Source: Fratercula arctica
Taxonomy: Eukaryota; Chordata; Aves; Charadriiformes; Alcidae
Direction of reading: 5' to 3'
DNA length: 64,000 nt
Assembly: GCA_947846985.1 (NCBI GenBank)
Contig: CANTUZ010000025.1
Span: forward strand, 8,740,100 to 8,804,099
The notes below the pieces were generated by a model. The model saw only the letters and a program-made list of their open reading frames with translations, was not told the origin of the DNA and made no database searches. Shown here one piece after another: positions 713-47,139 of this stretch. The translations under genes were made by a program, and so were the position numbers. Numbering within the stretch: position 1 is the first letter of the stretch; every line of letters begins with the position of its first letter.

Positions 713-716
713 AATT

Positions 717-735: not shown

Positions 736-738
736 GCC

Positions 739-5300: not shown

Positions 5301-5516
5301 ATTGGAACGGTACCAATGGTGCTGGCTACTCCCAAAATCCCCATGCATGGGAAGCCAAAGACTGTTCAGGGAAGATACACCGGATCAGTACTCGGTGGAT
5401 CTCGCCCTCTTTTTAACCCTGTCGGTCAAATAAGACCGAGCAGATTTTCTTTTCCTTTGTGTCTTACAGGAACCTTAGATGAACTGTACGTGGACAGATG
5501 GACTGGCTTACGCTAA
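2303..5516 (+). pseudogene. pol: ERV-1 pol: protease, RT, RNase H, integrase; broken
   Basis: Domains in order: retropepsin with IIDTGAQMS near 2416; reverse transcriptase with LDVKDMF (about 3030) and QYIDDIL (about 3225); RNase H with FTDVSS, GELRA and YTDSY (about 4135-4310); integrase zinc finger GHTGC...CSQC (about 4600-4700); core WQIDYIGP, QSDNGSHF and IVERTNG (about 4780-5080). Breaks: TGA at 2879-2881, a frame change near 3487, TGA at 3831-3833 and TGA at 5019-5021. The motifs themselves are conserved, so the copy is not very old. No dUTPase was seen. The 3' end overlaps the micro-ORF that starts at 5479. Confidence 0.9.
5446..5469 (+). promoter_or_regulatory. Predicted splice acceptor for ERV-1 env mRNA
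   Basis: A pyrimidine-rich run (TTTTCTTTTCCTTTGTGTC) ends in TTACAG at 5469. The first ATG downstream is that of the micro-ORF at 5479, the next useful one is env at 5606. A matching tract ending in TTTGCAG occurs at the same place in ERV-3 (35779). The partner donor would be the GGGTAAG inside the LTR. Confidence 0.6.
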
Positions 5517-5604
5517 CCTTGAGTGTCTCCAAGGAATCCTGACATTGATCCTGGCAGTAATATTATTCTTATTATGTATGGCTATCTGCAGACCTAAATT
5601 CTAA
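5479..5604 (+). CDS. Micro-ORF: 41-residue single-pass membrane peptide upstream of env
   Basis: This ATG opens a 41-codon frame that overlaps the end of pol and stops 1 nt before the env ATG. The N-terminal third is polar with a possible glycosylation site (NCT at residues 2-4) and the motif LEC. A hydrophobic stretch at residues about 19-37 is long enough to cross a membrane, and the peptide ends with PKF. It would be the first ORF after the predicted splice acceptor, so an env mRNA could be bicistronic. A homologous frame, with the same NCTW, LEC, QG and PKF landmarks, sits at 35780-35919 in ERV-3 although the two env genes differ. Function is unknown. It could be an accessory protein or an env leader piece; no family is recognised. 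Confidence 0.6.
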   Translation: MNCTWTDGLAYANLECLQGILTLILAVILFLLCMAICRPKF

Positions 5605-5605
5605 A

Positions 5606-8237
5606 ATGACAAATTGGCAGATGCAATTGATGCTATTCAGTTTTACCTTTTTATTCCCTGTTGTTTGTAGTCAAAGAGACCCAGAGTGGCCATGGTCTCA
5701 AGCTTTTGTTAAACACAATGCGATGGCAGGAACAAGTAAGGAAAAATTGAGTTTGGCCACTGTAGTTCTACATGAAAACAAGATGTTTTCAAAACATGAG
5801 TGGACCTGGAATAGTTGGTACCCAACCCTGAAAGGTAGGGCGGGAGAGGAAGTCCAAGTAGGATGTAGAATGATCAATGGCTCAAATCATGAGAAAGCCA
5901 CCAGGATAGAAATACTTTGCCCTCAAAACCCATGCTCAGTGACAAAAAAGCACTGCATCACTGACAAGTGGGATTGCTGGTATAATTTCACTCTTGTGGA
6001 ACCCACTTTTGTAACTTGTCATTGGCCACAGAATGAAATAGCACTGCTATTCGAATTCAAGATAGATGTAGTCGAACCTGACCCAACTACACAGCCACTG
6101 CCACTATCTGAAACCCCTGACACTGACCACACTGACACCTTGTTGAGTGGGCTTAAAAATCTGCCCCTTGATAATGAGCTTTGGGATAATGCATTGTCAC
6201 GGTACACTGCAAGCACTGGGACACCAGAAAACATAAGAGATTTAAATCTCTCCACTCTGGTTATACAAGGAAGCGATGTATATTCCAGAGAGAAATGGAG
6301 ATGGAATGAATCACTTTGAATGGCAAAAATCGAGGCCGCCCTTGGAAAGAGAATACACATTGGTTGTCGATTTATCAATGGGTCTACCCACCACAGGCCA
6401 ACTGTAATTAAAACCATCCATGTAGACTCTACCAAACCGGACAAATACAACACTGATTGTTAAAAATTACGGAGCCAAATTCAGATTGCTGGCACAATTT
6501 CACTTTTATCAGTAGTGTATTGTATTTGGGGTTACAAGGGCACAGAATTGTCATTTGAATTTATGATTGACTCTAATACATCTGAACCTGCTGAAATGAA
6601 TCCAGAACCTACACCCCCACAAACTCTCAAAGCTGTACCTACTCAGCCCTCCATTAGTCTAACTCCTTACACCTTCAACATTGGCCCTTATGTTATTAAA
6701 CACACAGGTCAACAATGGATATTATTCAATCCAACATATTCCCTCAAACGAGTAGAACTGTCAATGCAGATTAATATCTCTGTGATCAAACCCACCTGCT
6801 CACCATTCCTCAGTACATCTTATGCAGGATGGTCGGCATGGTTACACAAGACGAACTCTTGCCACTTCACAACGACTGAAGAGAGATGTGGCTGGTATCT
6901 TGGGAACAGGACTGGGAGTCCTAAATAGTATAGATGCTGAGATACTTGCCAACAAACTAGTCACAACCACTAGTGATCTAGACAAATTAAGACATCCCCT
7001 ACAGTCCTCTCTATCAGCATTAGGAAACCACCAATGGCTTTTGTCGAATATATTGCCTCAGTGGGAAGAAACAAGTGAAAAAGACCATCAGCTGATCACA
7101 GATGCACTTGGTACAACCCAAAACAATGTTTCCTTGGCTCTTAGTTGTATCCAAGCCCAATTGTGGATGCAATCTATGACAGCCGCAATCATAAGGGAAG
7201 GTGAAGAAGGCACCTTACCCACCGAAATTCGAAAAGTAATGTGGGATAACACAATTGAATTTGAGAAAAAATATCAGTCCTGGTGGTACCTGGTTAATTT
7301 CACCTATGATCCCATTGAGAGCAAGGCCACAGCTTTTGTCTTAACAATACGCAATGCTCTGGTATACACCATATACCCAATCATCGCACTGGGGTTGAAT
7401 CACCATGGAGCCATACTCTATCCAATAGAGCACAGAGTGTGGGCACAACAAAATGAGAATAAATGGCAAACTGTTGATGTTGACGCATGCATTTCACGAG
7501 ACCAACAAGGATTCATTTGTGAGAGTAATACTCTCAAAGCACAAGACATTTGTCTTGACACCAACCAAAACGTTTGTCATTTTGAGATACATCCCGATGA
7601 AACCCCAGAAACTGTGCTTGTATATATTGGGAAAGGGTGCGTTTGCATGAGGTCTCCCTGTAGGCTTGTATTCGTAGATGACATAGTAGTTGATATAAGT
7701 AATCACTCAAATCTTTGTGCTTGTAACTTTACTAACATTATTGGATGTGACTTTGATTATTCAGCTCCTGTTACGTCTTTTCAGTTGCTACATTCTAATT
7801 ATACATTGATCCGAGATTTGTTGCCTACCCCTATCGGAATGAATCTCTCACTGGTGAACAAGCTGCTACAACATGATGACTTGAAGCAACTGTTGAAAGA
7901 GGCCCAAGAAAACGGACAAAGAACTTTAATTACTGTCCATCATGATGTTGAAGAAATACACCAAGTACTGGAAAGAGTCAAGAAAGATGGAGGACATGAA
8001 TGGTGGGACACTCTTTTTGGATGGTCGCCAACAGCTACAGGAATCTTTAACAAGATGCACCATCCTGTTGTTGTTTTACTAGTACTCACTATGTTGTGCT
8101 TTGCTTTGACAGTTGTTTTGTATGTTAAACGATGGATTATGATGAAAAGCTTAACTCGCTTGATCGCTCCACAAGATGTATTTGTGCTTGATAACCCTCA
8201 CCTCAAGAGCACATCTGATATTCCCAATCAGTTTTAA
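5606..8237 (+). pseudogene. env: ERV-1 env: duplicated SU domain and large cysteine-rich TM subunit
   Basis: The ATG follows the micro-ORF stop by 1 nt. A hydrophobic signal peptide spans about residues 8-22. The surface subunit holds two similar domains, about 5740-6080 and 6249-6580. They share GCR(M/F)INGS, DCW(Y/H)NFT and FEF(K/M)ID landmarks, so they look like a tandem duplication. Breaks: TGA at 6317-6319, TAA near 6462, at least one frame change inside domain 2, and another near 6880. A basic cleavage-like site RLKR is followed by a glycine-rich, fusion-peptide-like stretch (about 6880-6925). The transmembrane subunit (frame 6822-8237, open for 471 codons) is long, has many cysteines, no CX6CC motif, and a membrane anchor at about 8060-8125. 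A large TM like this recalls spumavirus-type organisation more than gammaretroviral; exact family is uncertain. Confidence 0.8.
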
Positions 8238-15329: not shown

Positions 15330-15637
15330 GAGAAAACAAGATTTTTCAACACCAAAGCTGATAGGATGAGAGGAAACAGCCTCAAGTTGTGCCAGGGGAA
15401 GTACAGATTGGATATTAGGAAAAAAATTTTCATCAAAAGGATTATCAAGCATTGGAACAGGCTGCCCAGGGAAGTGGTTGAGTCACCATCCCTGGAGGTA
15501 TTTAAAAGACATGTAGATGTGGTACTTGGGGACATGGTTTAGTGTTGGACTTGGTAGTGTTAGGTTTGCAGTTGGACTCAACGATCTTAAAGGTCTTTTC
15601 CAATCTAAATGAGTCTATGATTCTATGAATTAAATGA
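15330..15637 (+). mobile_element. CR1 LINE 3' fragment
   Basis: Encodes the last ~65 residues of CR1 ORF2 (landmarks RLDIRKK and [18 protein letters not shown]). It then has the CR1 3' UTR ending TCTATGATTCTATGAAT. The 5' part is truncated, as is typical of LINE insertions. Confidence 0.9.
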
Positions 15638-15650
15638 AGAAACATCACAG

Positions 15651-15915
15651 TGTTGACGCGGAAGGTTCGAGCAATAACACGCAGACCAATATGATCAGGT
15701 TAATGCCACTTTATTCAACCTAAGTGTTACATTTATAGTATTATGATTTCTGTTCACGCGCTCTATCTCCTACTAATTGGCTGCATGCTATCTTCACGAG
15801 CTGTCCACGCGCTTGATTCTTTCTTGTCATTGGTCGACCTTTCTTGACGTATGATGTTTTCAATTCCTTTGTTACACTTCTTTCTGGTCAGCACTTCCTT
15901 ATCTCATGTCCGACA
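15651..15915 (-). repeat. 3' LTR of provirus B1
   Basis: Plus-strand limits are TGTTGACGCGG and GTCCGACA, giving TGTCGGAC...GTCAACA in element orientation. A poly(A) signal is seen as CTTTATT near 15710 on the plus strand. It is nearly identical to 20813-21077. Confidence 0.9.
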
Positions 15916-15947
15916 GTAACCTTTCTTAAACTCATGTCAAGGCAGGC

Positions 15948-16496
15948 CTACACAGCTGCTACCAACTCCTCAGTGCTTGGAGTGTTCATAGGGTGACCTC
16001 GTTGTATTAGAAATCCTTCCACAAATCCCCCTTTTTGTTTTTGAACACTCCAAGACTCTTCAGTTGCAAGCATTACTTGATTAAACCATATTTTTCTTAC
16101 CATGCGCTCCAAGCCTCTTTGCAAACAATAGAACAGACAAGGAACAATTAACAACACAACAAATATCATGATCAAAATCATTACGCCTATCTTTAAAAGG
16201 GATGCAACCCAGCCTGTGATTCCCCATCCTCTGAGCAGTCCTGTAAGCCAATGCCAGCTATCTTCACGAGCTTTCTCTCCTATATGAGCACTAGTTACAA
16301 CAAGGTGAGAAAACAAATCAACTGAAACATGTACATAGCGCAAACGTCCAAATTCCATAATGTCCATAACATCGGATTGCCAAAGTTCATCAGGTGTAAG
16401 CCCTCGCAGGGTAATCCCCGCAAATGATGGCAGAGGAGCCGGCTGCTGACAGCGCAAACGACCCTGTGAAATCAATCGTGCTAACATTTCAATCAT
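15948..16496 (-). CDS. Integrase/env-TM fusion ORF (182 codons), copy in B1
   Basis: Residues 1-75 match a betaretroviral-type integrase: the end of the zinc-binding region and the core start, with LWQSDVMDI carrying the first catalytic Asp, then FGRLRYVHVSVDLFSH. From about residue 77 the frame changes identity to the end of an env transmembrane subunit: WHWLTGLLRGWGITGW, a hydrophobic anchor at about residues 100-125, and a cytoplasmic tail. An internal deletion therefore joined pol to env in frame. The ORF is identical at protein level to 21110-21658. Stop is 33 bp from the LTR. A product would be a type II or tail-anchored membrane protein with a useless integrase stub. Whether it is translated is unknown. 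Confidence 0.7.
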   Translation of the reverse strand: MIEMLARLISQGRLRCQQPAPLPSFAGITLRGLTPDELWQSDVMDIMEFGRLRYVHVSVDLFSHLVVTSAHIGEKAREDSWHWLTGLLRGWGITGWVASLLKIGVMILIMIFVVLLIVPCLFYCLQRGLERMVRKIWFNQVMLATEESWSVQKQKGGFVEGFLIQRGHPMNTPSTEELVAAV

Positions 16497-16783
16497 CGTA
16501 GTTACTGTTTTTTGAAAAGGTATGTGGCAAAAATACTCACTCTAATGCAGTCAGGCTCTTTGCGAGTGCATCATCCCACTGTCCTATCAGGGCGTAAGGT
16601 TGAAATTTTTGATGTATCATAAACAAATCTACAATGTGCTGTAATGCTTTCTGAGCTGTTGGGGTTAATGAACGTGGAACCTACCAGGGAGGGGGGGCAG
16701 GCAGACACAGCACTTCAGGGCGTCCCCTGTATCTTCAAAGTGCGCTCATGTCTATCCCCCTCTCTCCGACCCGAGACAGCCCC

Positions 16784-16857
16784 CTTATATCCTGCCCCGG
16801 ATTGAGTGGAAAAGTACAGGCTAGGGTCGCTGCATGCATGGCCAGTGCATGCAGCGA
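16784..16857 (-). promoter_or_regulatory. TATA-like motif next to a perfect 12 bp hairpin (B1)
   Basis: On the plus strand TCGCTGCATGCA (16827-16838) and TGCATGCAGCGA (16846-16857) are exact inverted repeats around a 7 nt loop. About 40 bp away the minus strand reads GGATATAAGGGGG. Both are kept in B2 (hairpin at 21988-22018). Possible internal promoter or RNA export structure; inference only. Confidence 0.4.
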
Positions 16858-17055
16858 GCCTCACCAGACTCATGATCCAGCTTTGCTAACTGCGGATGTC
16901 TGATACCTGACTCCCTTGTACTCCCTTCTTGTTATCTTCTTCTTTGAAAGTTAGGTTCCCATGGACACACATATAGCTTTTCAGCAACAGTACCAAGTCC
17001 CTTTTTCCCAACATGCATACTGGGTTTGGTTCAACTAATAATTCTCCGTTGTGTC

Positions 17056-17560
17056 TCACTCGAACCATCCTCTATTATCCCTTACACATGCCACCCCGTG
17101 GCCCATAGTTGGGACACAAGGATATTTTATAACTCGTACAAGGGTATGATGCAAAGCAACATCTGCAACTGATCGTATAATGCTTATTAAACATAGCAAA
17201 CAGCATACTAAACATAACAGACAGATTCCTTCCACACAGGCAATGAGTATAATTTCCTTCAACCAACCCCACCCCCAAGTCCATCCAGCAAAGAGATTTC
17301 ACCCAGTGGTCTCCACAAGTTGCTGGCTCGGTCGGTGCAGTTCTTGCAACTGGGCATGGATGGATTTGGAGTGGTCACTTAGATTCATACAACACAGTCC
17401 TTTAAAATCTTGACAACTGTGTCCGTGAGCTAAAAGCAAAAAATCAATAGCAGTTCTGTTTTGCAGCGTTGCATGTTGAATACTATCTACATCTAGCAAT
17501 AACTCAGAAATAGCTGTACTAGTAGCATTACTAAACTTATCCTTGGCAGCGAGAGAGTCC
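17056..17560 (-). pseudogene. env: Env transmembrane subunit fragment, CX6CC type
   Basis: The frame shows a heptad/immunosuppressive-like stretch ([16 protein letters not shown]), then CQDFKGLCC, which is CX6CC, and then NLSDHS. A TGA at 17299-17301 is followed in the same frame by a Trp-rich membrane-proximal segment and a hydrophobic anchor (about 17175-17260) rich in Cys and Leu. The CX6CC arrangement is known in alpha-, gamma- and many class I ERV TM subunits. Its upstream side is replaced by LTR-like sequence (17545-17635). The whole 1.1 kb block is absent from B2, so it is either an insertion in B1 or a deletion in B2. Confidence 0.7.
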
Positions 17561-17635
17561 TTGTTATCAAGAATCCTTGGCAGCGAAAGAGTCCTTGTTA
17601 GCAAGAGCGTGTGTGGACTCCCTGTTCTTGCTGGT
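17545..17635 (-). repeat. LTR-like tandem segment also present at the right window edge
   Basis: Carries repeated ~18 bp units of the form GAGTCCTTGTTAGCAAGA and GAGTCCTTGGCAGCGAAA. It matches 63905-63990 closely. It interrupts the env TM reading frame, so it is a foreign LTR piece or a template-switch product. Confidence 0.7.
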
Positions 17636-17659
17636 ACTGTGCTTTGATCTTCTTCCACA

Positions 17660-18825
17660 ACAGGCCAAGATTCTCAAGCAGCTAGATAAGGTGTCCCTGA
17701 GTCCATTACAGACTGATGTCATCTAAGTGTTTTTCTTGCAAGCATCTGAGACTGAATAACAATGAGTGTGATAGATGTGTTTTCCAGCACCCAGGTGCGA
17801 GTCCCTTGAGCGTATTTACAATCCTCCTTGCTGATCTTCCGTTGCTTTCCCATATTCCACCCCCCGCTCAAGAGACCGCTTCTGCTGGGGTTCATTTAGT
17901 CTCGCAGGGTATAACACAGAGTAATTTACAAAGGCGTGCAATAACATATATACATATAGGAAAAACAAAAACCCAAAACCATATCTCTATAGCACTGCTT
18001 GAATCAGGTGTCCTATTTCTCTTTTTCTGCCGCTTTCTCGTAGCGCGTATGGCATACTTTTGTGCTAATGCGGCACATTTCCCTTCTAAATTGTTCCCTT
18101 TTTTTTTTTTTCTTCCCATCACTTATGGCTGACATAAAAGTCTGCCTTTGCAACAAGAGCTCACCCTTAAGTTTCTCATTTTCCTACAGAGCATCCTATA
18201 GATTTTGGCTCAACTCCTTTTCCCAGTCAGCCATGATCTTATAGGCAAACAACAAACAACCAGCCATACGCCCTGCATGGGTAAGCTGTTCCCGAGAGCG
18301 TAAGCATGTCGGCTGGTGAAAACTCCCCCAATATTTCAGGACTTCCATCAGTTCTATGGCCCATCATGGTCTATCTACCTGGGGCGCGCTCGCCTTACAT
18401 CTAAACATTGTGTATCTACAAACTTCTTCGCTTGACAGAGTGTCAGCCCTAGTCATGTATGAGAACAGTACCACACCGGGCAGAACACCTGCTCAAGCGG
18501 AGTCATCAAACGACACTGCACACAACAACAAACAAACAGTAGCACAGATGCTGATCAGCAGATATAAATTGGCGCCCACACACACTTACACAGCAAACAT
18601 ACAAAAACACCAGTTCTATCTCAGGGAGACGGCTGGGGGGGGGAGGGGGGGGCAGTGGCAGGAGCAAAGCGGCTCCGGCTCCGTCCTTCTCCCCCGACAT
18701 TCTGACAATACACTGCAATACCCCGATTCCGGCTGTGCACGTATAAGTGGTTGATAAGAAGGAACAGATGCGGTACCTGGCGCAAATGGAGGAGGGTTAA
18801 GAATGGAGGAGCGCGATAACGACTT
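17660..18825 (-). other. B1 internal region without recognised gene
   Basis: Contains a poly-T run near 18100 and G-rich stretches near 18635. From 18175 on, the sequence is shared with B2 (22214-22870) at high identity but with small indels that break any frame. I recognise no gene. Confidence 0.5.
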
Positions 18826-19330
18826 TCATCTCTGTTGCTGTAAAATCTCCTCCACAGTTGGAGCAGAGGCAGCCATAGCTTTAATTGGGGTTAAAGGTGG
18901 ACATAAATCAGGTTCAGTCTCTGGATTTATTGGGCCAGGATCAAAGGGATCTTCTGGCTCTTCGCCTCCTGAATTCTGTTTTTGGTAATGTTTTTCAGAA
19001 TTGGGAATTTGAGCATATTTAGGCTGAGGGTCTGCAACTGGGGGTGTCATTTCAAAAGACTGAGGTTCCTTTGGGGGAGCTTGTGGTGCCCCTCCAGCAA
19101 CCCCTTGCAGGGCTTGCTCTGCGGGATGCATTGCTCGTATGGCAGTGTATACAGTTCGCCAAGTAACTATTATTCCTCTGGCAAGGACAAGTGCAGCGTC
19201 TCCCGCGTTTGCAATTCCTCCCCCACTTTTAGCCACTGAGCCAAATCGTAGGACCACCCTTCAGGGAACCATAAGCAATAATCACGTATCCATACAAGCA
19301 AAAAATTTCCGAGTCAAATACTCATTCGCA
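18826..19330 (-). pseudogene. gag: Remnant of gag module C in B1
   Basis: The 3' part keeps the acidic, proline-rich tail seen in B2 module C (EEPEDPFDPGPINPETEPD) and the following EEILQQQR end. The 5' matrix part is truncated and frameshifted near 19240-19300, and the upstream module B ORF joins it abruptly. Confidence 0.65.
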
Positions 19331-19332
19331 TC

Positions 19333-20244
19333 CTATGAACCCATCTCCGCTTCTTCTAGCATAGTACAAATCCATCTCCTCACTTTCTGTTCTTTAACAT
19401 TATCTCCCTTTTCTGATACATTACACTGTTGCGTATCCCCAGACTCGTCCGCTGCTGCCCCAGACAGATCACCCGTTCCCGGACTCCCACACACCCTCTC
19501 CTCAACCGCCTGCAAACCCTCCTTGATAACCTCATGAGCCTTTTTATAAGCAGCCCGTATCGCGCCCGCTTTCGAACCCTTATCAAGTCTCTGCATTTCC
19601 GCGAGCAATTGCTGCATAGTGTTCTGTTGATCGCGGAGAGCGTCACAGAGCTCCGCAGTATCTTTAGGTGGATAGATGGTTTTCGGACGAACATCCTCGG
19701 AGGATGATGATGTTTCCATAGGCTGAGGAGAGTCGGGGGGAACCTGCGTGGATGACTCCGGTAGACCAGAGTACGGTGGAGCGGTTGGTTGCAGAGGCAT
19801 GAGAGGTGACGGCAGTGGCGGTGAAAATGTCCATCCATCAGACGCCCCCCAGAACTCCTTTTCTGACTGCTTTATTACAGGAAATGCATTGGAGGACAAA
19901 CTGTTTCCCTCTTCCCCAGCTGCATCTAACACCCTCTGGGCTGCGGCAGCAATAACAGCTGATCCATGCATGCCTGCAACCAGTCCCTTCACCTGTCGAT
20001 AAGTGCCTGCCAGGTTCCGGGCTTCCTTATTCTCTGACTGCACTGCTTCCCACATTTCCACTCCAATTCTAGTCCATGTTGAAAGGTCAAACAACTGAGT
20101 CGGATCTCTGAGCAATCCTCGTCGTCGGCACCAAGATAATAGTTCCAGTAAAGCACCCTTACTGAGGTTTTCCCTGGCACTTTTTGCCAGCTGCAGCAAA
20201 CTTTGTACCGCTGCCTTTTCCACGGCTGATACAGCCGAACCCAT
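19333..20244 (-). CDS. gag: Matrix-like module B with proline-rich and coiled-coil tail (303 codons)
   Basis: Starts MGSAVS, a fit to the N-myristoylation pattern MGxxx(S/T). Residues 1-95 resemble modules A and C: a helical region with LLELLSWCRRRGLL and STWTRIG. Residues about 150-190 are proline-rich and contain PTAP, a known TSG101-binding late-domain motif. Residues about 205-260 form a charged helical, coiled-coil-like stretch. It begins 83 nt downstream of the splice donor that ends module A, so it may be used on unspliced or differently spliced RNA. Probably the MA-p2/p12 part of a Gag whose capsid is deleted. The open frame is long and intact. Confidence 0.7.
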   Translation of the reverse strand: MGSAVSAVEKAAVQSLLQLAKSARENLSKGALLELLSWCRRRGLLRDPTQLFDLSTWTRIGVEMWEAVQSENKEARNLAGTYRQVKGLVAGMHGSAVIAAAAQRVLDAAGEEGNSLSSNAFPVIKQSEKEFWGASDGWTFSPPLPSPLMPLQPTAPPYSGLPESSTQVPPDSPQPMETSSSSEDVRPKTIYPPKDTAELCDALRDQQNTMQQLLAEMQRLDKGSKAGAIRAAYKKAHEVIKEGLQAVEERVCGSPGTGDLSGAAADESGDTQQCNVSEKGDNVKEQKVRRWICTMLEEAEMGS

Positions 20245-20627
20245 ACTACCGTTCCCACTCTAGGTGGCTCCCACTTCCCGTGGGGTCGCAGATCTGCTCC
20301 TGCCTCTCTTGGGCAGCCCGGCTTACCTTGGCGCCGGCGGTAGTATCCCCGCGTTTCTTTTAAAGTTTCTGTAACAAGCCGCCACAGCGTTGATAGCTTG
20401 TGTGCCTCTTTAGATCCTCGGCTTACTTCATCCCACAACACTGCCCCTATTTTAGCCCAAGTATCCTGGGCAAAGGCAGCCGCCACCGTGGGAAAAAGCC
20501 CCTTGTCTCTTGCCCATACTAAAAGTGACTTCAAAGAGGCAGAATCATATTTCAGTCCTCTCATAGAGAGCATATGTTGGAGGAGCTTAACTACAGCCTC
20601 TTCCTCTTTTGAGGTTGCAGACCCCAT
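19989..20627 (-). CDS. gag: Matrix-like module A in B1, with internal splice donor
   Basis: Starts MGSATS, again a myristoylation-type N-terminus, and continues with a helical matrix-like domain (SLLVWARDKGLFP and TWAKIG) to about residue 95. A strong donor (CCAAG/GTAAGC, minus strand at 20326) follows the domain. Sequence beyond it in this frame is probably intronic, so the coding exon is likely 20327-20627. The start is about 170 nt from the primer site. The module is homologous by eye to B (20244 onward), to A in B2 (23889 onward) and more weakly to C. Function of the extra module is unknown. Confidence 0.7.
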   Translation of the reverse strand: MGSATSKEEEAVVKLLQHMLSMRGLKYDSASLKSLLVWARDKGLFPTVAAAFAQDTWAKIGAVLWDEVSRGSKEAHKLSTLWRLVTETLKETRGYYRRRQGKPGCPREAGADLRPHGKWEPPRVGTVVWVRLYQPWKRQRYKVCCSWQKVPGKTSVRVLYWNYYLGADDEDCSEIRLSCLTFQHGLELEWKCGKQCSQRIRKPGTWQALIDR

Positions 20628-20792
20628 CTCCTCCCGGCCGCCCGCCTGATCAGAGCAGGATTTCCCTTTATAGATGCGCTAGCGTCTTCCCGAGTGCCGG
20701 GGCAGCACTCACTTTTCGGCCGCTTCTTCCGCCCCTCCGATTGCCGGCTGGATTTTGGGTAGGTGCAGTCCCAAAAGAAAACCGATCTGAGG

Positions 20793-20810
20793 GTCCCTGT
20801 TCGGGCGCCA
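20793..20810 (-). other. Primer binding site, tRNA-Lys3 type (B1)
   Basis: Minus strand reads TGGCGCCCGAACAGGGAC, the tRNA-Lys3 complement, 2 nt inside the LTR. Confidence 0.95.
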
Positions 20811-20812
20811 CT

Positions 20813-21077
20813 TGTTGACGCGGAAGGTTCAAGCAATAACACGCAGACCAATATGATCAGGTTAATGCCACTTTATTCAACCTAAGTGTTACATTTATAG
20901 TAGTATGATTTCTGTTCACGCGCTCTATCTCCTACTAATTGGCTGCATGCTATCTTCACGAGCTGTCCACGCGCTTGATTCTTTCTTGTCATTGGTCGAC
21001 CTTTCTTGACGTATGATGTTTTCAATTCCTTTGTTACACTTCTTTCTGGTCAGCACTTCCTTATCTCATGTCCGACA
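20813..21077 (-). repeat. Middle LTR shared by proviruses B1 (5') and B2 (3')
   Basis: 265 bp, same limits and near-identical sequence to 15651-15915. It serves as 5' LTR of B1 and 3' LTR of B2, the pattern expected after recombination between proviruses at an LTR. Confidence 0.9.
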
Positions 21078-21109
21078 GTAACCTTTCTTAAACTCATGTC
21101 AAGGCAGGC

Positions 21110-21658
21110 CTACACAGCTGCTACCAACTCCTCAGTGCTTGGAGTGTTCATAGGGTGACCTCGTTGTATTAGAAATCCTTCCACAAATCCCCCTTTTTGT
21201 TTTTGAACACTCCAAGACTCTTCAGTTGCAAGCATTACTTGATTAAACCATATTTTTCTTACCATGCGCTCCAAGCCTCTTTGCAAACAATAGAACAGAC
21301 AAGGAACAATTAACAACACAACAAATATCATGATCAAAATCATTACGCCTATCTTTAAAAGGGATGCAACCCAGCCTGTGATTCCCCATCCTCTGAGCAG
21401 TCCTGTAAGCCAATGCCAGCTATCTTCACGAGCTTTCTCTCCTATATGAGCACTAGTTACAACAAGGTGAGAAAACAAATCAACTGAAACATGTACATAG
21501 CGCAAACGTCCAAATTCCATAATGTCCATAACATCGGATTGCCAAAGTTCATCAGGTGTAAGCCCTCGCAGGGTAATCCCCGCAAATGATGGCAGAGGAG
21601 CCGGCTGCTGACAGCGCAAACGACCCTGTGAAATCAATCGTGCTAACATTTCAATCAT
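21110..21658 (-). CDS. Integrase/env-TM fusion ORF, copy in B2
   Basis: Same 182-codon protein as at 15948-16496, with the integrase stub (LWQSDVMDI) joined to an env anchor and tail. Same distance to the LTR. Identity may reflect recent common origin rather than selection; synonymous-site comparison would tell. Confidence 0.7.
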   Translation of the reverse strand: MIEMLARLISQGRLRCQQPAPLPSFAGITLRGLTPDELWQSDVMDIMEFGRLRYVHVSVDLFSHLVVTSAHIGEKAREDSWHWLTGLLRGWGITGWVASLLKIGVMILIMIFVVLLIVPCLFYCLQRGLERMVRKIWFNQVMLATEESWSVQKQKGGFVEGFLIQRGHPMNTPSTEELVAAV

Positions 21659-21987
21659 CGTAGTTACTGTTTTTTGAAAAGGTATGTGGCAAAAATACTC
21701 ACTCTAATGCAGTCAGGCTCTTTGCGAGTGCATCATCCCACTGTCCTATCAGGGCGTAAGGTTGAAATTTTTGATGTATCATAAACAAATCTACAATGTG
21801 CTGTAATGCTTTCTGAGCTGTTGGGGTTAACGAACGTGGAACATACAAGGGAGGGGGGGCAGGCAGACACAGCACTTCAGGGCGTCCCCTGTATCTTCAA
21901 AGTGCGCTCATGTCTATCCCCCTCTCTCCGACCCGAGACAGCCCCCTTATATCCTGCCCCGGATTGAGTGGAAAAGTACAGGCTAGG

Positions 21988-22018
21988 TCGCTGCATGCAT
22001 GGCCAGTGCATGCAGCGA
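21988..22018 (-). promoter_or_regulatory. Perfect 12 bp hairpin (B2 copy)
   Basis: Same stem and loop as in B1 (16827-16857), with the TATA-like motif again near it. Confidence 0.4.
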
Positions 22019-22873
22019 GCCTCACCAGACTCATGATCCAGCTTTGCTAACTGCGGATGTCTGATACCTGACTCCCTTGTACTCCCTTCTTGTTATCTTC
22101 TTCTTTGAAAGTTAGGTTCCCATGGACACACATATAGCTTTTCAGCAACAGTACCAAGTCCCTTTTTCCCAACATGTATACTGGGTTTGGTTCAACTAGT
22201 AATTCTCCGTTGTGTTCTCATTTTCCTACAGAGCATCCTATAGATTTTGGCTCAACTCCTTTTCCCAGTCAGCCATGATCTTATAGGCAAACAACAAACA
22301 ACCAGCCATACGCCCTGCATGGGTAAGCTGTTCCCGAGAGCGTAAGCATGTCGGCTGGTGAAAACTCCCCCAATATTTCAGGACTTCCATCAGTTCTATG
22401 GCCCATCATGGTCTATCTACCTGGGGCGCGCTCGCCTTACATCTAAACATTGTGTATCTACAAACTTCTTCGCTTGACAGAGTGTCAGCCCTAGTCATGT
22501 ATGAGAACAGTACCACACCGGGCAGAACACCTGCTCAAGCGGAGTCACCAAACGACACTGCACACAACAACAAACAAACAGTAGCACAGATGCTGATCAG
22601 CAGATATAAGCTGGCGCCCACACACACTTACACAGCAGACATACAAAAACACCACTTCTGTTGCAGGGAGACGGCTGGGGAGGGGAGGGGGTGAGGCGGG
22701 CAGCGGTGGGAGTGAAGCGGCTCTGGCTCCGTCCTTCTCCCCCGACATTCTGACAATACACTGCAATACCCCGATTCCAGCTGCGCACGTATAAGCAGTT
22801 GAGAAGGAGGAACAGATGCGGTACCTGGCGCAAATGGAGGAGGGTTAAGAATGGAGGAGCGCGATAACGACTT

Positions 22874-23452
22874 TCATCTCTGTTGCTGTAAAATCTCCTC
22901 CGCAGTTGGAGCAGAGGCAGCCATAGCTTTAATCGGGGTTAAAGGTGGACATAAATCAGGTTCAGTCTCTGGATTTATTGGACCAGGATCAAAGGGATCT
23001 TCTGGCTCTTCGCCTCCTGAATTCTGCTTTTGGTAATGTTCTTCAGGATTGGGAATTTGAGCATATTCAGGCTGAGGGTCTGCAACTGGGGGTATAATTT
23101 CAAAAGACTGAGGTTCCTCTGGGGGAGCTTGTGGTCCCCCTCCAGCAACCCCTTGCAGGGCTTGCTCTGCGGGATGCAGTGTTCGTATGGCAGTGTATAC
23201 AGTTCGCCAAGTAACTAGTATTCCTTCTGGCAAGGACAAGTGCAGCGTCTCCCGTGTTTGCAATTCCTCCCCCACTTTTAGCCACTGAGCCAAATCGTAG
23301 GACCCCCCTTCAGGGAACCATGAGCAATAATCACGTGTCCATATAAGCAAAGATACTAATTTGACAGGGGCCACTTTAAAGCCCTGTTCTGTTAAAATGC
23401 GCTGCAGAAGTTCAAGTTGCAATTTCTGTTCTCGAGTAGCTGTTTGTCCCAT
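22874..23452 (-). CDS. gag: Gag module C: betaretroviral-type matrix with acidic/proline tail (192 codons)
   Basis: Starts MGQTAT, a myristoylation-type N-terminus. Residues 1-70 show the betaretroviral matrix pattern (LLIWTRDYCSWFPEGG and LAQWLKVGEEL). Residues about 75-190 are rich in Pro, Glu and Ala, ending EEILQQQR. Capsid and nucleocapsid are missing because of the internal deletion. The start lies 26 nt below a splice donor (AAAAG/GTGAGC at 23478) that would end module A. Most likely the genuine Gag start of this lineage. Confidence 0.75.
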   Translation of the reverse strand: MGQTATREQKLQLELLQRILTEQGFKVAPVKLVSLLIWTRDYCSWFPEGGSYDLAQWLKVGEELQTRETLHLSLPEGILVTWRTVYTAIRTLHPAEQALQGVAGGGPQAPPEEPQSFEIIPPVADPQPEYAQIPNPEEHYQKQNSGGEEPEDPFDPGPINPETEPDLCPPLTPIKAMAASAPTAEEILQQQR

Positions 23453-23454
23453 TT

Positions 23455-23889
23455 TTAATGTCTACTGCAGCTGCTCACCTTTTTCGTCCAGCGAACGGCG
23501 ATGAAAGTAATTGTTAGAGAGCTCTCGGTATGAATTCCTCCGTCCAGCCGCAGGTACACCACCAGATAATTAGTTCTTAATATCTCTGTTCCTTTTAATC
23601 CTTGTTTGGACTTCATCTGCTGCAATGTGTCCTTAATTAACCTCCAGGTTGTTAAGACCTTCGTAGCTACCGCATCCCCTTTCGTTGCTGCCTCAAACAA
23701 AGTTTCACCGGCTTGCTCCCAACTTGATAATTGGAAAGCTGTTGTAGAATCAGCGGGAAGGCCCTTGCTTTTTAGCCATGCTAGCAAAAGCCGAAGAGTT
23801 CCTTCATCATATTGTATACCCCTTTTACTTAAAAACTTTTCTAATATACATACAATCGCCTTTTCCTCTGAGGACATTTTTGACCCCAT
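23455..23889 (-). CDS. gag: Matrix-like module A in B2, between two splice donors
   Basis: I take the ATG at 23889 (MGSKMS, myristoylation-type) rather than the upstream in-frame ATG at 24000, whose leader is arginine-rich and crosses a donor-like GTGAGC at 23913. The domain (LLLAWLKSKGLP and SSWEQAG) covers about 95 residues. A second donor, AAAAG/GTGAGC at 23478, lies just before the frame ends. It could be the first coding exon of a spliced product. Confidence 0.65.
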   Translation of the reverse strand: MGSKMSSEEKAIVCILEKFLSKRGIQYDEGTLRLLLAWLKSKGLPADSTTAFQLSSWEQAGETLFEAATKGDAVATKVLTTWRLIKDTLQQMKSKQGLKGTEILRTNYLVVYLRLDGGIHTESSLTITFIAVRWTKKVSSCSRH

Positions 23890-24008
23890 TCTCACACGTT
23901 CCCGGCTGCTCACCTTTCCTTGGTGATTAGTCGTCCGGACTGCAGCTCTCCGATACCGCCGCTTTTTTCGTTCAGCCGGGCTGCTCCACCGGTCGTACAT
24001 TCCTACGA

Positions 24009-24032
24009 TTCAAGTCCCGATTCGGGCAGCCA
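24009..24032 (-). other. Primer-site-like sequence of B2
   Basis: Minus strand reads TGGCTGCCCGAATCGGGAC, 2 nt inside the LTR. It resembles the Lys3 site but with changes; the cognate tRNA is unclear. Confidence 0.6.
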
Positions 24033-24034
24033 TT

Positions 24035-24328
24035 TGTGGAGCATTGATTCACGGACTCTGGCAGGGTATGGACCAAAGACCTTTATTACAACAATTTCCC
24101 GAGTTTTATAGGTACAGGCACTGCCCACGCGCAGGCAGCATCCTGCTGATAGGTTGAAGGTTGATCGCCACGCACTTCTCGGTGTCTTCCGATTGGTCGT
24201 CTCTGTCTGTTCACGCGGAGTAGCAGCTTTGCTTTTCACATTCCTTTCCTTGCTGATATCTCCTGATGCTTGCTTATCTTTTCTCTCAAGGCGTCTCTCA
24301 AGGATACAGTTTTGTCTCACCAAGGTCA
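24035..24328 (-). repeat. 5' LTR of provirus B2, different subtype
   Basis: Starts (plus strand) TGTGGAGC, with CTTTATT (poly(A) signal in reverse) near 24077. Overall plan matches the B1 LTR but the sequence is distinct. The outer limit is approximate because no target duplication was found. Confidence 0.65.
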
Positions 24329-24329
24329 A

Positions 24330-25159
24330 ACAGATCCCCTATGCTACTCCCTATCTCTACAAGGCTATTTGATATTTCTGCTATGTGTGACAAAGTACTT
24401 GAGTTTGGTTCCAAATATAATGTTGAAATCCAGACGATACTTCATTCATTGTGATTTTTGCCTTCATTTTGATGGGAACAGTATTCACTCCTAATGTATA
24501 AAATAATTACTCTGTAGAAATATACAGTACTGTTTGTTCTTGGAATGATCCATAGAGTCATTTGGGGGTTTGACTCTATATTGACACACTTTGCTCACTC
24601 ACTGGTGCTTCAATTCCTCATACATAAAAAACAATAAAGATTCTTCCCATTTATAGTCAGGTCTTTAGGGACAGTAGATTATAAGCACTGCAGTGTTGCA
24701 CCATGCTTTATATAGACATTTATCAGAGCAATGGCATAATCCAAATCCTGGAAAATTTTGACAATTTATAGGCCTGTCATCATTCTACTGTGAGGATGTG
24801 CTGTACTCAGTGCCTGAAATTTTGAGTCTACTAACCAAAAAGAGAAATTATACTCTACAGTATGCTGACAGTTCATCTTTTCAGCAAATGGCAATGAGAA
24901 GGAATCAACTAACAACCCCAAGTTCAGCACATTAAAGGGACCCTTTTTGTGCAGATTCTCAGAGTAGCACTGTACCTTTTTTTACCCATACAGATGAGTG
25001 CATTTGGATCCAGCAGGACAGCTAATGGAGGGCAAGCAGCAGGCCTGCTGGCTGTGATACCATGGGACACTAACCCCAGTAAATATTGGAGAAAGAAGCA
25101 TTCTCCAGTTGTAATTGTCTATGCATGACTATAAGAAATGAGTACCATTATTAAATTGC
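24330..25159. other. No gene seen
   Basis: Unique-looking sequence between provirus B2 and a CR1 fragment. Confidence 0.55.
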
Positions 25160-25885
25160 TGCAAGTTTGCTGATGACACAAAGCTGGGAGGGGTGGCTGA
25201 CACACCAGAAGGCTGTGCCGACACACCAGAAGGCTCTGCTGCCATACAGAGAGACCTGGACAGGCTGGAGATTTGGGCGGAGAGAAACCTTATGAAATTC
25301 AATAAGGGCAAGTGTAGGGTGCTGCACCTGGGGAGGAATAACCCCATGCACCAGTACAGGTTGGGGGCTGACCTGCTGGAGAGCAGCTCTGTGGAAAGAG
25401 ACCTGGGAGTCCTGGTGGACAACAGGATGACCATGAGGCAGCAATGTGCCCTTGTGGCCAAGAAGGCCAATGGCATCCTGGGGTGCATCAAGAAGAGTGT
25501 GGCCAGCAGGTTGAGGGAGGTCATCCTCCCCCTCTACTCTGCATTGGTAAGGCTGCATCTGGAGTACTGTGTCCAGTTCTGGGGTCCCTGGTTCAAGGAG
25601 GACAGGGAACTGCTGGAGAGGGCACAGCAAAGGGCTACCAAGATGGTTAGGGGACTGGAACACCTCTCTCATGAAGAAAGGCTGAGGGACTTGGGTCTTT
25701 TCAGTCTGGAAAAAAGACGACTGAGGGGGGATCTTATCAACACTTATAAATACTTAAAGGGTGGGTGTCAGGAGGATGGGGCCAGGCTCTTTTCAGTGGT
25801 GCCCAGTGACAGGACAAGAGGTAACGGGCACAAACTTGAACGTAGGAAGTTCCATCTCAACATGAGGGATTCGCAGGCTGACAGA
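25160..25885 (+). mobile_element. CR1 LINE fragment, C-terminal RT
   Basis: Starts within the CR1 catalytic FADD block ([14 protein letters not shown] reading) and continues open for about 240 codons with [23 protein letters not shown] and RRLRGDL landmarks. It loses CR1 similarity near 25885, before the 3' UTR, so it is truncated at both ends. Confidence 0.85.
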
Positions 25886-26044
25886 AAAGATGAAGGTAAG
25901 ACATCAAGAGCATTCTGCTCATGTTCAGCCCCGCACCCAGGCAGATGCTGAGATAAAGGAGACAAGATATGCTGTGGATTGCTCTGGGCTAGATGGGGAG
26001 GAAGACAACAAGCTCTCCTTGGAGATACCCTGTATTTAACAGAA

Positions 26045-30712: not shown

Positions 30713-31489
30713 CTAGATCAGATTGCTCAGAGCCTCATCAAGCCTGGCCTTGAATGTCTCCAGGGATGGGGCCTCCACCACCTCTCTGGGCAACCTCTTC
30801 CAGTGCCTCACCACCCTCATTGTAAAGAACTTCTTCCTAATGTCTAATCTAAACCTACCCTGCTCTAGTTTAAAACCATTGCCCCTCGTCCTATCGCTAC
30901 ACGCCCTTGCAAACAGCCCCTTCCCAGCTTTCTTGTAGGCCCCCTTCAGGTACTGGAAGGCCGCTATAAGGTCTCCCCGGAGCCTTCTCTTCTCCAGGCT
31001 GAACAACCCCAGCTCTCTCAGCCTGCCTTCATAGGAGAGGTGCTCCAGCCCTCTGATCATCTTCGTAGCCCTCCTCTGGACCAGCTGCAACAGGTCCATG
31101 TCTTTCTTGTGCTGAGGGCTCCAGAGGTGGATACAGTACTCCAGGTGGGGTCTCACGAGAGCGGAGTAGAGGGGGAGAATCACCTCTCTTGATCTGTTGG
31201 CCACTGTTCTTTTGATGCAGCCCAGGATGCAATTGGCCTTCTGGGCTGCAAGCGCATGTTGTTGGCTCATGTCCAGCTTTTCATCCACCAGTACCCCCAA
31301 GTCCTTTTCCGCAGGGCTGCTCTCTATCCCTTCATCCCCCAGCCTGTACTGATAATGAGGATTGTCCCAACCCAAGTGTAGGACCTTGCACATGGCCTTG
31401 TTGAACTTCATGAGGTTTGCTCGGGCCCACCTCTCTAGCTCATCCAGATCCCTCTGGATGACATCCCGTCCCTCTGGCCTGTCAACCAC
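30713..31489 (-). pseudogene. CR1 ORF2 C-terminal RT part
   Basis: Open for 258 codons. It begins just after the FADD block and has [34 protein letters not shown] and RDGEG-type downstream landmarks, ending in the CR1 C-terminus. It is separated from the upstream RT (31495-33398) by frame breaks around 31490-31910, including a G-rich expansion. Confidence 0.85.
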
Positions 31490-31740
31490 ACCACTCAGCT
31501 TGGTGTCATCGGCAAACTTGCTGAGGGTGCACTGATCCCACTGTCTAAATCATTGATGATGATGTTGAACAACACCGGTTCCAGTATGGATCCCTGAGGG
31601 ACATCACTTGTCACCCCTCTCCCTGTGGACATCGAGCCATTGACCACCACCCTCTGGATGCGACCATCCAGCCAGTTCCTTATCCACCAAACAGTCCACC
31701 CATCAAACCCGTATCTCTCCAACTTAGAGAGAAGGATGTT

Positions 31741-31772
31741 GGGGGGGGGGACGGGGACGGGACGGGGGGACC
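31741..31772 (+). repeat. G-run expansion inside CR1, quadruplex-type
   Basis: Plus strand has four G tracts of 3 or more separated by AC dinucleotides. It lies inside the RT coding frame of the minus-strand CR1 and breaks it. Confidence 0.6.
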
Positions 31773-31910
31773 GTGTCAAAGGCCTTGCAGAAGTCCAGGT
31801 AGATGATATCCATTGCTCTCCCCTTGTCCACTGATGCAGCCACTCCATTGTAGAAAGCCACCAGGTTGGTCAGACAGGACTTGCCCCTGGTGAAGCCATG
31901 CTAGCTGTCT

Positions 31911-33398
31911 CTAATCACCTCCCTGTCCTCCATGTGCCTTAGCATAGCTTCTAGGAGGATCTGTTCCATGATCTTCCCAGGCACAGAGGTGAGGCTGACC
32001 GGTCAGGTAGTTCCCAGGGTCCTCCTTTCTACCCTTTTTAAAAATGGGTGCGATGTTTCTCTTTTTCCAGTCACCAGGGACTTTACCTGACTGCCACGAC
32101 TTTTCAAATATCATGGAGAGTGGCTTGGCAACTACATCAGCCAATTCCCTCAGGACTCTGGGGTGCATCTCATCGGGTCCCATAGACTTGTGTATATTCA
32201 GGTTCCTCAGGTGGTCACGAACCTTGTCTTCACTTACAGTGGGAGGGACTTTGTCCCCCAGGTCCCCGTCTTGCAATCTTTCAACTCGGGAGGTGTGAGG
32301 AGAGAGGCTGGCAGTGAAGACCGAGGCAAAAAAGTTGTTGAGAACCTCAGCCTTCTCCTCATCCATTGTTACTAGTTTGCCATTCTTGGTCATCAGGGAG
32401 GGCACGCTTTCTTTAACCTTCCTTTTCTGGTTGACATACCTGTAGAAGCCCTCCTTGTTATTCTTAGCATCCCTTGCCAAGTTCAGCTCCAGACGCGCCT
32501 TGGCCTTCCTGACCTCATCCCTACACTCTTCCCAGGACACCTGATGCTGCTTGAACTGCCTGTGCAGTTCCTTCTTGCCTTTTAGTTTGACCAGCAGGTC
32601 CCAGCTCAGCCATGCTGGTCTCCTCCCTTTCTTACTTGATTTCTTACACCTGGGGACTGAGAGCTCTTGTGCTCTATGGAAAGCATCCTTGAAGATCTGC
32701 CAGCTCTGTTCTGCCCCCTTGTCCCTGAGGACCATTTCCCAGGGGGTCCTATTGACTAACTCCTTGAAGAGCTGGAGGTTTGCTTTCCTAAAATTCAGGG
32801 TCCTGACTAGGCTCCTCGTCTGGCACGTATCCCTCAGGACCGTGAGCTCCACCAGTGCGTGGTCACTGCAGTCCAGGCTGCCTCCAATCTTGACATCCCC
32901 GATGAGCTCACTTGCATTGGTGACTATGAGGTCCGGTATGGCATCCCCTCGGGTAGGGCTGTCTATTTCCTGTCTTAAGAAGTTATCGTCGAGGCACTCC
33001 AGGAACCGCCTGGATTGTCTACAGCTTGCCGTGTTACTTTTCCAGCAGATGTCGAGGTGGTTGAAATCCCCCAGCAGGACGAGAGCCTTCGAGCGCAATG
33101 CCTCCTGTAGCTGGAGGAAGAAGGCTTCATCAGTAGGTTCCCCTTGATCAGGCGGCCTGTAGTAGACGCCAACCACAAAGTTCCCCTTATTGCCTCGGCC
33201 TCTAATTCCTACCCATAAGCTTTCGACTGCCTCTTGGCTGTTCTTTAGGGACATCTCTTCACACTCTATCCATTCCTTAACATAGAGGGCAACACCTCCG
33301 CCCCTCCTTCCTCGCCTGTCCCTTCTGAACAGCCTGTAGCCATCGATAGCCACGGGCCAGTCATAGGATTCGTCCCACCAGGTTTCAGTAATGGCCAC
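31911..33398 (-). pseudogene. CR1 ORF2 endonuclease and N-terminal RT (495 open codons)
   Basis: Apurinic-type endonuclease landmarks [22 protein letters not shown] and SDHALVEL are present. RT start landmarks follow ([18 protein letters not shown], and [13 protein letters not shown]). The ORF starts at an internal ATG within the endonuclease; the true CR1 start would be further upstream. It is frameshifted after 31990. Confidence 0.85.
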
Positions 33399-33742
33399 TA
33401 TGTCCTAGCTTTCTAGCAGCATGGTAGCTTCCAACTCCTCCTGTTTGTTGCCTGTGCTGCGTGCATTCGTGTAGAGGCACTTCAGCTGGGCTGTTGGCTG
33501 TGACGCCTTCTTAGAGGAGCATCCCTTGGGGTGTTTCACAGGTGTTTCCCTGCTGACTCGGACTACCTCAGGAGCCCCTGGCTCGTCTCCCTAAGACTTT
33601 GGCTGCGATGTAGCATCCCCAGCGTGCCTCGGGGAAACAGGTCAAAGGTCCTTACTAGCACCCCGTCCCTCTATCCCTGACGTGTTGTCCCACAGCTTGT
33701 CACAGACAAGCCTAATATTATCATCCCCCTCCCCCTTCACAT

Positions 33743-35684: not shown

Positions 35685-35755
35685 ACACCGAATTAGTACC
35701 AGATGGGCGGTACCTACCTTTTAACTTAACTCTGCCAGTCAGAATACAACTGAGC

Positions 35756-35779
35756 ATTCTCTTTTGGTTTACTTTGCAG
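35756..35779 (+). promoter_or_regulatory. Predicted splice acceptor of ERV-3
   Basis: A T-rich tract ends TTTGCAG at 35779. It aligns with the ERV-1 acceptor at 5446-5469; both follow GTCA...ACGAG/ACTGAGCA-type sequence. Confidence 0.6.
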
Positions 35780-35919
35780 AAACACTGACGACAACAAATT
35801 GCACCTGGGACCACGGCCTATCCTACACAGAGTTGGAGTGTCCTCAAGGCTCGCTAATAGCTCTAACAATCTGACTTGCTTTCATAGTGTTGATAATAGT
35901 TTGGCAACCGAAATTTTAA
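35780..35919 (+). pseudogene. ERV-3 copy of the membrane micro-ORF
   Basis: In frame from the acceptor: NCTW at 35797, LEC and QG at about 35836-35856, a hydrophobic run, and a final PKF before TAA at 35917. One TGA (35872-35874) interrupts the hydrophobic run, and the position of the ERV-1 ATG reads ACA, so this copy is inactive or uses another start. The env ATG follows the stop by 5 nt (35925). The frame otherwise stays open over its whole length despite divergence, which argues for past coding. Confidence 0.6.
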
Positions 35920-35924
35920 CCACG

Positions 35925-41563: not shown

Positions 41564-41571
41564 GTCCTTTT

Positions 41572-41589
41572 TGGTGCCCAACGTGGGGC
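41572..41589 (+). other. Primer binding site, tRNA-Lys1,2 type
   Basis: TGGTGCCCAACGTGGGGC matches the Lys1,2 complement except position 4. Confidence 0.9.
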
Positions 41590-41666
41590 TCGAAGGGTTG
41601 AGACAACGACAGAATCCAACTAGAGCTTGAAAAAACGAATTTGTTAGGTAAATAGTCACGGTCACT

Positions 41667-47128: not shown

Positions 47129-47139
47129 GGGGTGGATAA

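What the first reader, a model, noticed from the sequence alone, without database searches (positions are those of the whole stretch)
18826..24000. Several myristoylation-type matrix modules in one betaretrovirus-like lineage, with splice donors between them
Seen: MGSATS (20627), MGSAVS (20244), MGSKMS (23889) and MGQTAT (23452) each open a ~95-residue helical domain with similar spacing of LL.W, GL and W..(I/A)G positions. Donors lie right after module A in both proviruses (20326 and 23478) and before module A in B2 (23913). Known: a retroviral Gag normally has one matrix domain. Inference: duplicated matrix domains used as alternative first exons, giving membrane-targeted accessory proteins or alternative Gags.
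Basis: partly seen in the sequence, partly recalled or inferred. Interest (0 to 1): 0.8.

Follow-up and report, generated by a model that had tools for sequence, protein, structure and literature searches.

The report
Stacked matrix genes in bird proviruses
Two broken retroviruses lying head to tail in what looks like a bird genome each begin with two matrix-protein genes in a row instead of one, most likely because the front ends of different retroviruses were joined by recombination, although a special use cannot be excluded.

Summary
All four modules are retroviral matrix (MA) domains at the stated coordinates (minus strand), mutually homologous. C (MGQTAT) and A' (MGSKMS) pass Pfam Gag_p10; A (MGSATS) does not, though 2 of 5 relatives do; B (MGSAVS) has no Pfam match, but its predicted fold matches RSV, MMTV and M-PMV matrix. 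A broken fifth module (C') lies at 19313-18826.

Each of the four modules has a strong splice donor 25-86 nt before its own ATG: the ordinary leader-donor-Gag ATG layout repeated, so the donor "after module A" belongs to the next gag. Three of three A-type relatives extending past MA run straight into a Gag-like proline-rich region without a second module. First modules and leaders of the two proviruses are related; the stretches before the second modules are not, and C is of another clade.

Best reading: two separately formed mosaic, defective betaretrovirus-like proviruses, each with a foreign leader-plus-MA behind its own MA. Functional stacking (alternative exons, double packaging handles) is not excluded but has no positive evidence. 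No bird genome could be searched.

The parts
24035..24332 (-). LTR-B, 5' LTR of unit 1 (5' border provisional, no second copy found in the window)
   Evidence: TG...CA ends, TATAAA and AATAAA read; weak co-linear similarity to LTR-A, score 258 against a maximum of 250 in 300 resampled sequences
24015..24032 (-). Lys-type primer binding site of unit 1 (diverged; tRNA assignment recalled)
   Evidence: read directly; 5 mismatches of 18 to the unit 2 PBS, counted one base over
23908..23916 (-). splice donor 1 of unit 1, AAG|GTGAGC, 25 nt before module A'
   Evidence: PWM score 10.72, spacing
23590..23889 (-). module A' (MGSKMS), matrix domain; homology to A-type Gags ends at about 23602
   Evidence: Pfam Gag_p10 1e-5
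23473..23481 (-). splice donor 2 of unit 1, AAG|GTGAGC, 27 nt before module C
22874..23452 (-). module C (MGQTAT) and following Gag proline-rich region, 192-aa ORF
   Evidence: Gag_p10 3.1e-14; M-PMV matrix 5e-8; 91% to an Alca torda protein, 55% to a Pelusios castaneus protein
21113..21703 (-). 197-codon open frame joining an integrase fragment to the Env TM C-terminal region (apparent deletion product); near-identical copy at 15951-16541
   Evidence: Pfam rve and GP41, both below cut-off; repeat 99.4%
20813..21185 (-). LTR-A: 3' end of unit 1 and 5' LTR of unit 2
   Evidence: TGTGG...CAACA, purine tract before and PBS after it; 2 of 373 mismatches to the 3' copy
20793..20810 (-). primer binding site of unit 2, Lys3 type (assignment recalled)
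   Evidence: read directly
   Evidence: PWM score 9.07, spacing
20322..20627 (-). module A (MGSATS), matrix domain; ORF runs to 19989; homology to A-type Gags ends at about 20346
20321..20329 (-). splice donor 2 of unit 2, AAG|GTAAGC, 83 nt before module B
   Evidence: PWM score 11.05, spacing
19333..20244 (-). module B (MGSAVS) plus proline-rich Gag-like region with a PTAP motif, 303-aa ORF
18826..19313 (-). C': broken copy of module C and its Gag region, starting inside the matrix domain (about residue 35), frameshifted
   Evidence: Gag_p10 2.9e-6 for the first piece; 95.9% DNA identity to unit 1
17302..17673 (-). Env TM fragment; contains the only acceptor above the crude threshold (17429)
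   Evidence: Pfam TLV_coat 4.7e-5, just above its cut-off; acceptor scan
15651..16023 (-). 3' LTR-A of unit 2

Best explanation
This is a head-to-tail pair of defective, recombinant betaretrovirus-like proviruses. Both descend at their 5' ends (U5, Lys-type PBS, leader, first matrix domain A or A') from one lineage whose ordinary Gag has a single A-type matrix. In each, the original gag was cut just after the matrix domain and replaced by the 5' end of a different retrovirus's gag: leader with its own donor, ATG, matrix and proline-rich region (B in unit 2, C in unit 1). Unit 2 then carries a further, truncated C-type gag. The likely mechanism is template switching between co-packaged RNAs during reverse transcription, with unit 2 later mobilised in trans; this is inferred. 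Shown: the MA identity, donor positions, relatedness of the 5' ends, unrelated inter-module DNA, and near-identical LTRs of unit 2. As translated, the first ATG (A or A') would give a short MA protein with a myristoylation signal and the second gag would be poorly translated (inferred); no special function is needed.
For: All four modules are MA by at least one of profile, pairwise or fold comparison. Each has its own donor at leader distance, 4 of 4, and these are 4 of the 6 donors scoring >=9 in 8.7 kb. U5-PBS-leader of the two units is homologous (score 191 against a maximum of 157 in 500), while interAB against interA'C is not (p 0.52). C clade against A/A'/B clade 100/100. A-type Gags elsewhere continue from MA into a proline-rich region (3 of 3 that extend past MA: P0008, P0009, P0010), and those tails have no match better than E 0.29 in the window. 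No capsid, nucleocapsid, protease or RT Pfam match in 44 of the 56 minus-strand pieces >=45 aa (count). LTR-A copies differ at 2 of 373 sites while C' is frameshifted and env and pol are fragments; no LTR-like repeat or PBS closer than 7 of 18 mismatches lies between A and B. Mosaic ERVs, and packaging and reintegration of defective recombinants by 'midwife' elements, are described for human ERVs (PMC4724089, passages).
Against: Two independent cuts at nearly the same place (residues 94-97, end of MA) is a coincidence that a pure accident does not predict. Donor-ATG spacing is alike within each unit (86/83 and 25/27) although the leaders are not clearly alike, which is unexplained. The A and B ORFs are open while the rest is broken. 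Relatives were seen as proteins only, so a second module further downstream in them was not ruled out. No target-site duplication was recognised. InterAB against leader A' gave p 0.003 and 0.010 and leader A' against interA'C p 0.05 and 0.14, so a distant common origin of the leaders is not excluded.
Confidence: 0.6

Rival explanations
1. One reading: the lineage carries stacked matrix genes as alternative first exons; splicing from the donor behind A gives a membrane-targeted MA fusion or an accessory protein, and skipping A gives the second Gag.
For: Strong donors behind A and A'. The one acceptor above the crude threshold (17429) coincides with where the C-terminal tails of two Alca torda proteins match the window (17429-17388), which suggests, from the proteins alone, that those gene models put an exon there. 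By frame arithmetic, unit 2's second donor leaves one base of a codon and 17429 is the second base of an Env TM codon, so the join would be in frame. The A and B ORFs are open.
Against: Donor positions fit the following gag; donor phases differ between the two units; C is not of the same clade as B and the inter-module stretches are unrelated; A-type relatives have a single module. The Alca proteins are annotations, not transcripts, their exon structure was not seen, and they do not contain A. An in-frame junction has a one-in-three chance.
Confidence: 0.12
2. Tandem leader-plus-MA modules are packaging handles: a non-autonomous element that keeps the 5' end of several helper viruses can be packaged by more than one Gag.
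For: MMTV packaging needs the whole 5' UTR and about 120 nt of gag (PMC3473059, abstract). Each of the four modules keeps donor, ATG and MA. Unit 2 has near-identical LTRs but broken downstream genes. Non-autonomous LTR elements that retrotranspose are described for mouse VL30 (PMC4859993, passages).
Against: Leader-MA regions fold no better than shuffles: z 0.23, -1.85, -0.24, 0.48. Only one copy of each arrangement was seen.
Confidence: 0.08
3. The stacking arose in chromosomal DNA or in the assembly: nested insertions, deletions, gene conversion or a misjoined repeat array placed fragments of unrelated proviruses side by side.
For: Head-to-tail units share one LTR; unit 1 has different LTRs at its ends; no target-site duplication was recognised; the surroundings are full of repeats.
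Against: No LTR remnant was seen and no good PBS was found between A and B or A' and C (best 7 mismatches of 18 at 20319, and 6 of 18 at 23615, just upstream of the A'-C stretch). The second modules begin with donor and ATG in both units.
Confidence: 0.17

Closest known systems
Betaretrovirus matrix p10 (Pfam Gag_p10: M-PMV, MMTV)
   Same: C matches M-PMV MA at 5e-8; A' passes and A approaches the Pfam cut-off; MG...S/T start; Lys-type PBS (assignment recalled)
   Different: Normally one MA per Gag, followed by capsid and nucleocapsid (recalled); here two or three in a row and no capsid found in the pieces scanned
Alpharetrovirus (RSV) matrix
   Different: Window modules carry an N-terminal MG...S signal, which RSV MA lacks (recalled); sequence identity only 20-21%
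Mosaic (recombinant) human ERVs (Vargiu et al. 2016, PMC4724089)
   Same: Parts of different ERVs within one pair of matching LTRs; defective recombinants able to reintegrate (passages)
   Different: No stacked gag 5' ends in the 12 passages seen; the rest of the paper was not read
VL30, non-autonomous mouse LTR elements (PMC4859993)
   Same: Identical or near-identical LTRs around broken genes (passages)
   Different: No coding open frames in the members described in the passages; stacked modules not mentioned there

Membership tests
Gag_p10 (betaretroviral matrix) | Pfam gathering score (23.9 bits) reached | tested here: inconclusive
   C 53.1, A' 25.8 and the first C' piece 27.6 pass; A 18.1 does not, and of its five relatives P0010 (25.5) and P0008 (23.9) reach it while P0009, P0011 and P0012 (14.2, 12.4, 13.6) do not; B no hit
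Retroviral matrix fold | five-helix MA fold | tested here: met
Retroviral matrix fold | N-myristoylation | not testable with these tools
   starts MGSATS, MGSAVS, MGSKMS, MGQTAT are present; acylation needs a bench test
Betaretrovirus-like provirus | matching LTRs, PBS, polypurine tract | tested here: met
   unit 2; unit 1 only has a 5' LTR of type B and ends in LTR-A
Betaretrovirus-like provirus | gag capsid/nucleocapsid, pro, pol and env present | tested here: not met
   only matrix, integrase and Env TM pieces in 44 of 56 open pieces scanned, apart from weak non-retroviral matches below cut-off; these are defective derivatives
Mosaic reintegrated ERV (criteria in PMC4724089) | same LTR at both ends and no internal unrelated LTR | tested here: met
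   unit 2; an internal LTR was looked for only by self-comparison and PBS scan
Mosaic reintegrated ERV (criteria in PMC4724089) | several copies with the same internal structure and different flanks | not testable with these tools
   The genome search did not complete

The most novel reading that the evidence does not exclude
A retroelement strategy of stacking 5' modules: non-autonomous proviruses repeatedly capture the leader, donor and matrix start of other retroviruses behind their own matrix start, so that one RNA can be packaged (or spliced and targeted to membranes) by the machinery of more than one virus. Two units doing this independently, cut at the same point of MA, would be the trace of selection for it.
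Probability: 0.1. Interest if true: 0.75.

Novelty: new variant of a known kind. Interest (0 to 1): 0.4.

Why it matters
If ordinary, it is a clear example that ERV recombination can stack whole leader-plus-matrix starts, and a warning that tandem matrix ORFs with donors between them are not by themselves alternative exons. If the stacking is maintained, it would be a new layout for retroviral 5' ends and a direct way to ask how non-autonomous elements exploit several helpers. It also documents a matrix sequence (B) that Pfam and the PDB sequence search miss.

Tried and rejected
Search of the window's own genome: the genome search did not answer in eight tries, so copy number is unknown. Viral contigs with module C: one locus, L001, which shares only a 13-residue stretch and looks like a chance match. 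Viral contigs and genome contigs with the A-type alignment: 33 and 108 pattern matches, none a relative. Alignment of all four modules: not conserved enough to search with. The 303-aa B ORF: 7235 candidates, none at E<=0.001. Rfam: nothing at the gathering score.

Rejected: chance similarity of the modules. Rejected: simple tandem duplication of one MA inside each unit (C is in another clade; leader A and the A-B stretch are not clearly alike, p 0.10 and 0.08). Against a clean split: leader A' against the A'-C stretch p 0.05 and 0.14, and interAB against leader A' p 0.003 and 0.010, among ten and six comparisons; I do not build on these. Programmed frameshifting from A into B or C: both second frames are +2 relative to the first, but A' ends in a stop before C. 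RNA structure of the four starts: nothing unusual, B lowest at z -1.85.

Papers: eight searches brought up no paper on stacked matrix genes among the titles and abstracts listed. They were capped lists of a library without most subscription journals, the most direct, matched mainly unrelated words. Seen: abstract of PMC3473059; abstract and passages of PMC4272516; passages of PMC4724089, PMC10536682 and PMC4859993. PMC3958055 is not held.

Caveats: the donor and acceptor matrices are recalled generic vertebrate frequencies. The 100-nt window and score 9 were chosen after seeing the sites. 'Shuffles' are first-order resampling. In one search, 6 of 7 inner branches are open, B and A' are long branches and the bootstrap had not settled.
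Full report
What is there. On the minus strand of 24335-15651 lie two retroviral units head to tail. Unit 1 runs from LTR-B (24332-24035) through module A' (23889) and module C (23452) to about 22215, where it joins a 1.4-kb 3' part ending in LTR-A (21185-20813). Unit 2 runs from that same LTR-A through a PBS, module A (20627), module B (20244), a broken C' (19313-18826) and an Env TM fragment to a second copy of the same 1.4-kb 3' part and LTR-A (16023-15651). The 3' parts are 99.4% and the C gag regions 95.9% identical; the two LTR-A copies differ at 2 of 373 sites.

The donors. Counted by the module that follows, every module has a donor scoring 9 or more at 86, 83, 25 and 27 nt before its ATG. 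The chance of 4 of 4 within 100 nt is about 1.6e-6 at the whole-window donor rate and about 2.3e-5 at the rate of this stretch itself, with threshold and distance chosen afterwards. A donor between PBS and Gag ATG is the ordinary retroviral layout (recalled). So the pattern says 'leader, donor, ATG, MA' twice per unit, not 'MA exon, donor'.

Relatives. C-type: an Alca torda protein (91%), a turtle protein from Pelusios castaneus (55%) and a partial Alca torda protein (93% over 42% of the query). A-type: a goshawk protein (Accipiter gentilis LOC126035847, 63%), two JGI contig proteins (66% and 59%), a fragment labelled Klebsiella pneumoniae (65%) and an unnamed ncbi fragment (64%). In the three A-type proteins that extend beyond MA, MA is followed at once by a shared ASAFxAL segment and proline-rich sequence, with no second MA; the other two end inside MA. 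The tails have no match in the window better than E 0.29. Module A matches the A-type proteins up to about 20346 and A' up to about 23602, that is, to residues 94-97 (one relative's match to A' runs to residue 101).

Same first module, different second module. From U5 through PBS and leader the two units align better than 500 of 500 resampled sequences (score 191 against a maximum of 157), whereas the A-B and A'-C stretches do not (p 0.52). The tree separates C, Alca and Pelusios from A, A', B and the A-type relatives with 100/100; inside the groups nothing is resolved. Thus A and A' hold the same place behind related leaders, while B and C are different acquisitions. The single-module state of A's closest relatives (57-66% identity to A, against 38-39% between A and A') suggests that stacking is derived.

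What is missing. Of 56 minus-strand open pieces of 45 residues or more in 15400-24700, 44 were scanned against Pfam. Found: Gag_p10 in four pieces, one integrase/Env TM fusion in two copies (both below cut-off) and one Env TM piece; no capsid, nucleocapsid, protease or RT; a few weak non-retroviral matches below cut-off. The 12 not scanned lie in LTR, flank or the second copy of the 3' part. Both units are therefore defective as far as scanned.

How it most likely arose and works. Recombination, most simply template switching during reverse transcription of co-packaged RNAs, put a foreign leader-plus-gag start behind the A-type MA. Unit 2, with matching LTRs around already broken C', env and pol, was probably mobilised in trans; this is inferred and rests on LTR similarity, which gene conversion could also produce. 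Translation would favour the first ATG (A: GAGGAGATGG; A': GTGAGAATGG), so the second Gag would be made poorly unless A is skipped (inferred). The scan found one acceptor above threshold, at 17429 in Env TM. The C-terminal tails of two Alca torda proteins match the window from there (17429-17388), which suggests an exon in those gene models; that is annotation and not RNA, and the exon structure was not seen.

What remains odd. Two separate cuts at the same point of MA, alike donor-ATG spacing within each unit, and open A and B frames among broken genes are not explained by accident alone. They are the reason for keeping a functional reading (packaging handles or exon use) at about 0.1-0.2 in all. 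MMTV packaging needs the 5' UTR and about 120 nt of gag (PMC3473059, abstract), which would explain why leaders and gag starts are what is kept; but the four starts do not fold clearly better than shuffles (z 0.23, -1.85, -0.24, 0.48). Nothing here reaches expression, copy number or selection, because the genome search did not complete.

Noticed in passing
window 41214-47475 and 51834-58076: Two copies, in opposite orientation and 97.4% identical, of a 6.26-kb element with ~340-bp LTR-like direct repeats; the first copy has a pol ORF with RT, RNase H and integrase.
   Followed up: partly
window 1-8234: Another ERV-like stretch on the plus strand: a coiled-coil ORF, an aspartyl protease ORF (Pfam), and RT-like and env-like ORFs by eye (the 6786-8234 ORF has no Pfam match at 0.01), plus an antisense integrase fragment at 2-568.
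   Followed up: partly
window 21113-21703 and 15951-16541: A deletion appears to join an integrase fragment to the Env TM C-terminal region in one 197-codon open frame, open in both copies.
   Followed up: partly
window 35754-37415: Env-like plus-strand ORFs; of three scanned, the last has a weak TLV_coat match (0.0016, below cut-off).
   Followed up: partly
P0011 (330-base contig named Klebsiella pneumoniae): A retroviral matrix fragment of the A type under a bacterial name, most likely contamination.
   Followed up: no
P0005 and P0007 (Alca torda proteins): Their C-terminal tails match window 17429-17388 in a non-Env frame behind the C-type gag part, as if a gene model joined gag to an exon in env; worth checking in RNA.
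   Followed up: partly
window 20713, 20327, 23914, 23479: Donor-to-ATG spacing is nearly equal within each unit (86/83 and 25/27) though the leaders are not clearly alike; unexplained.
   Followed up: partly
window 25142-25948 and 30716-33404: CR1-like LINE reverse transcriptase ORFs (identity recalled, no call), which together with the Alca and Accipiter relatives suggest a bird genome.
   Followed up: no
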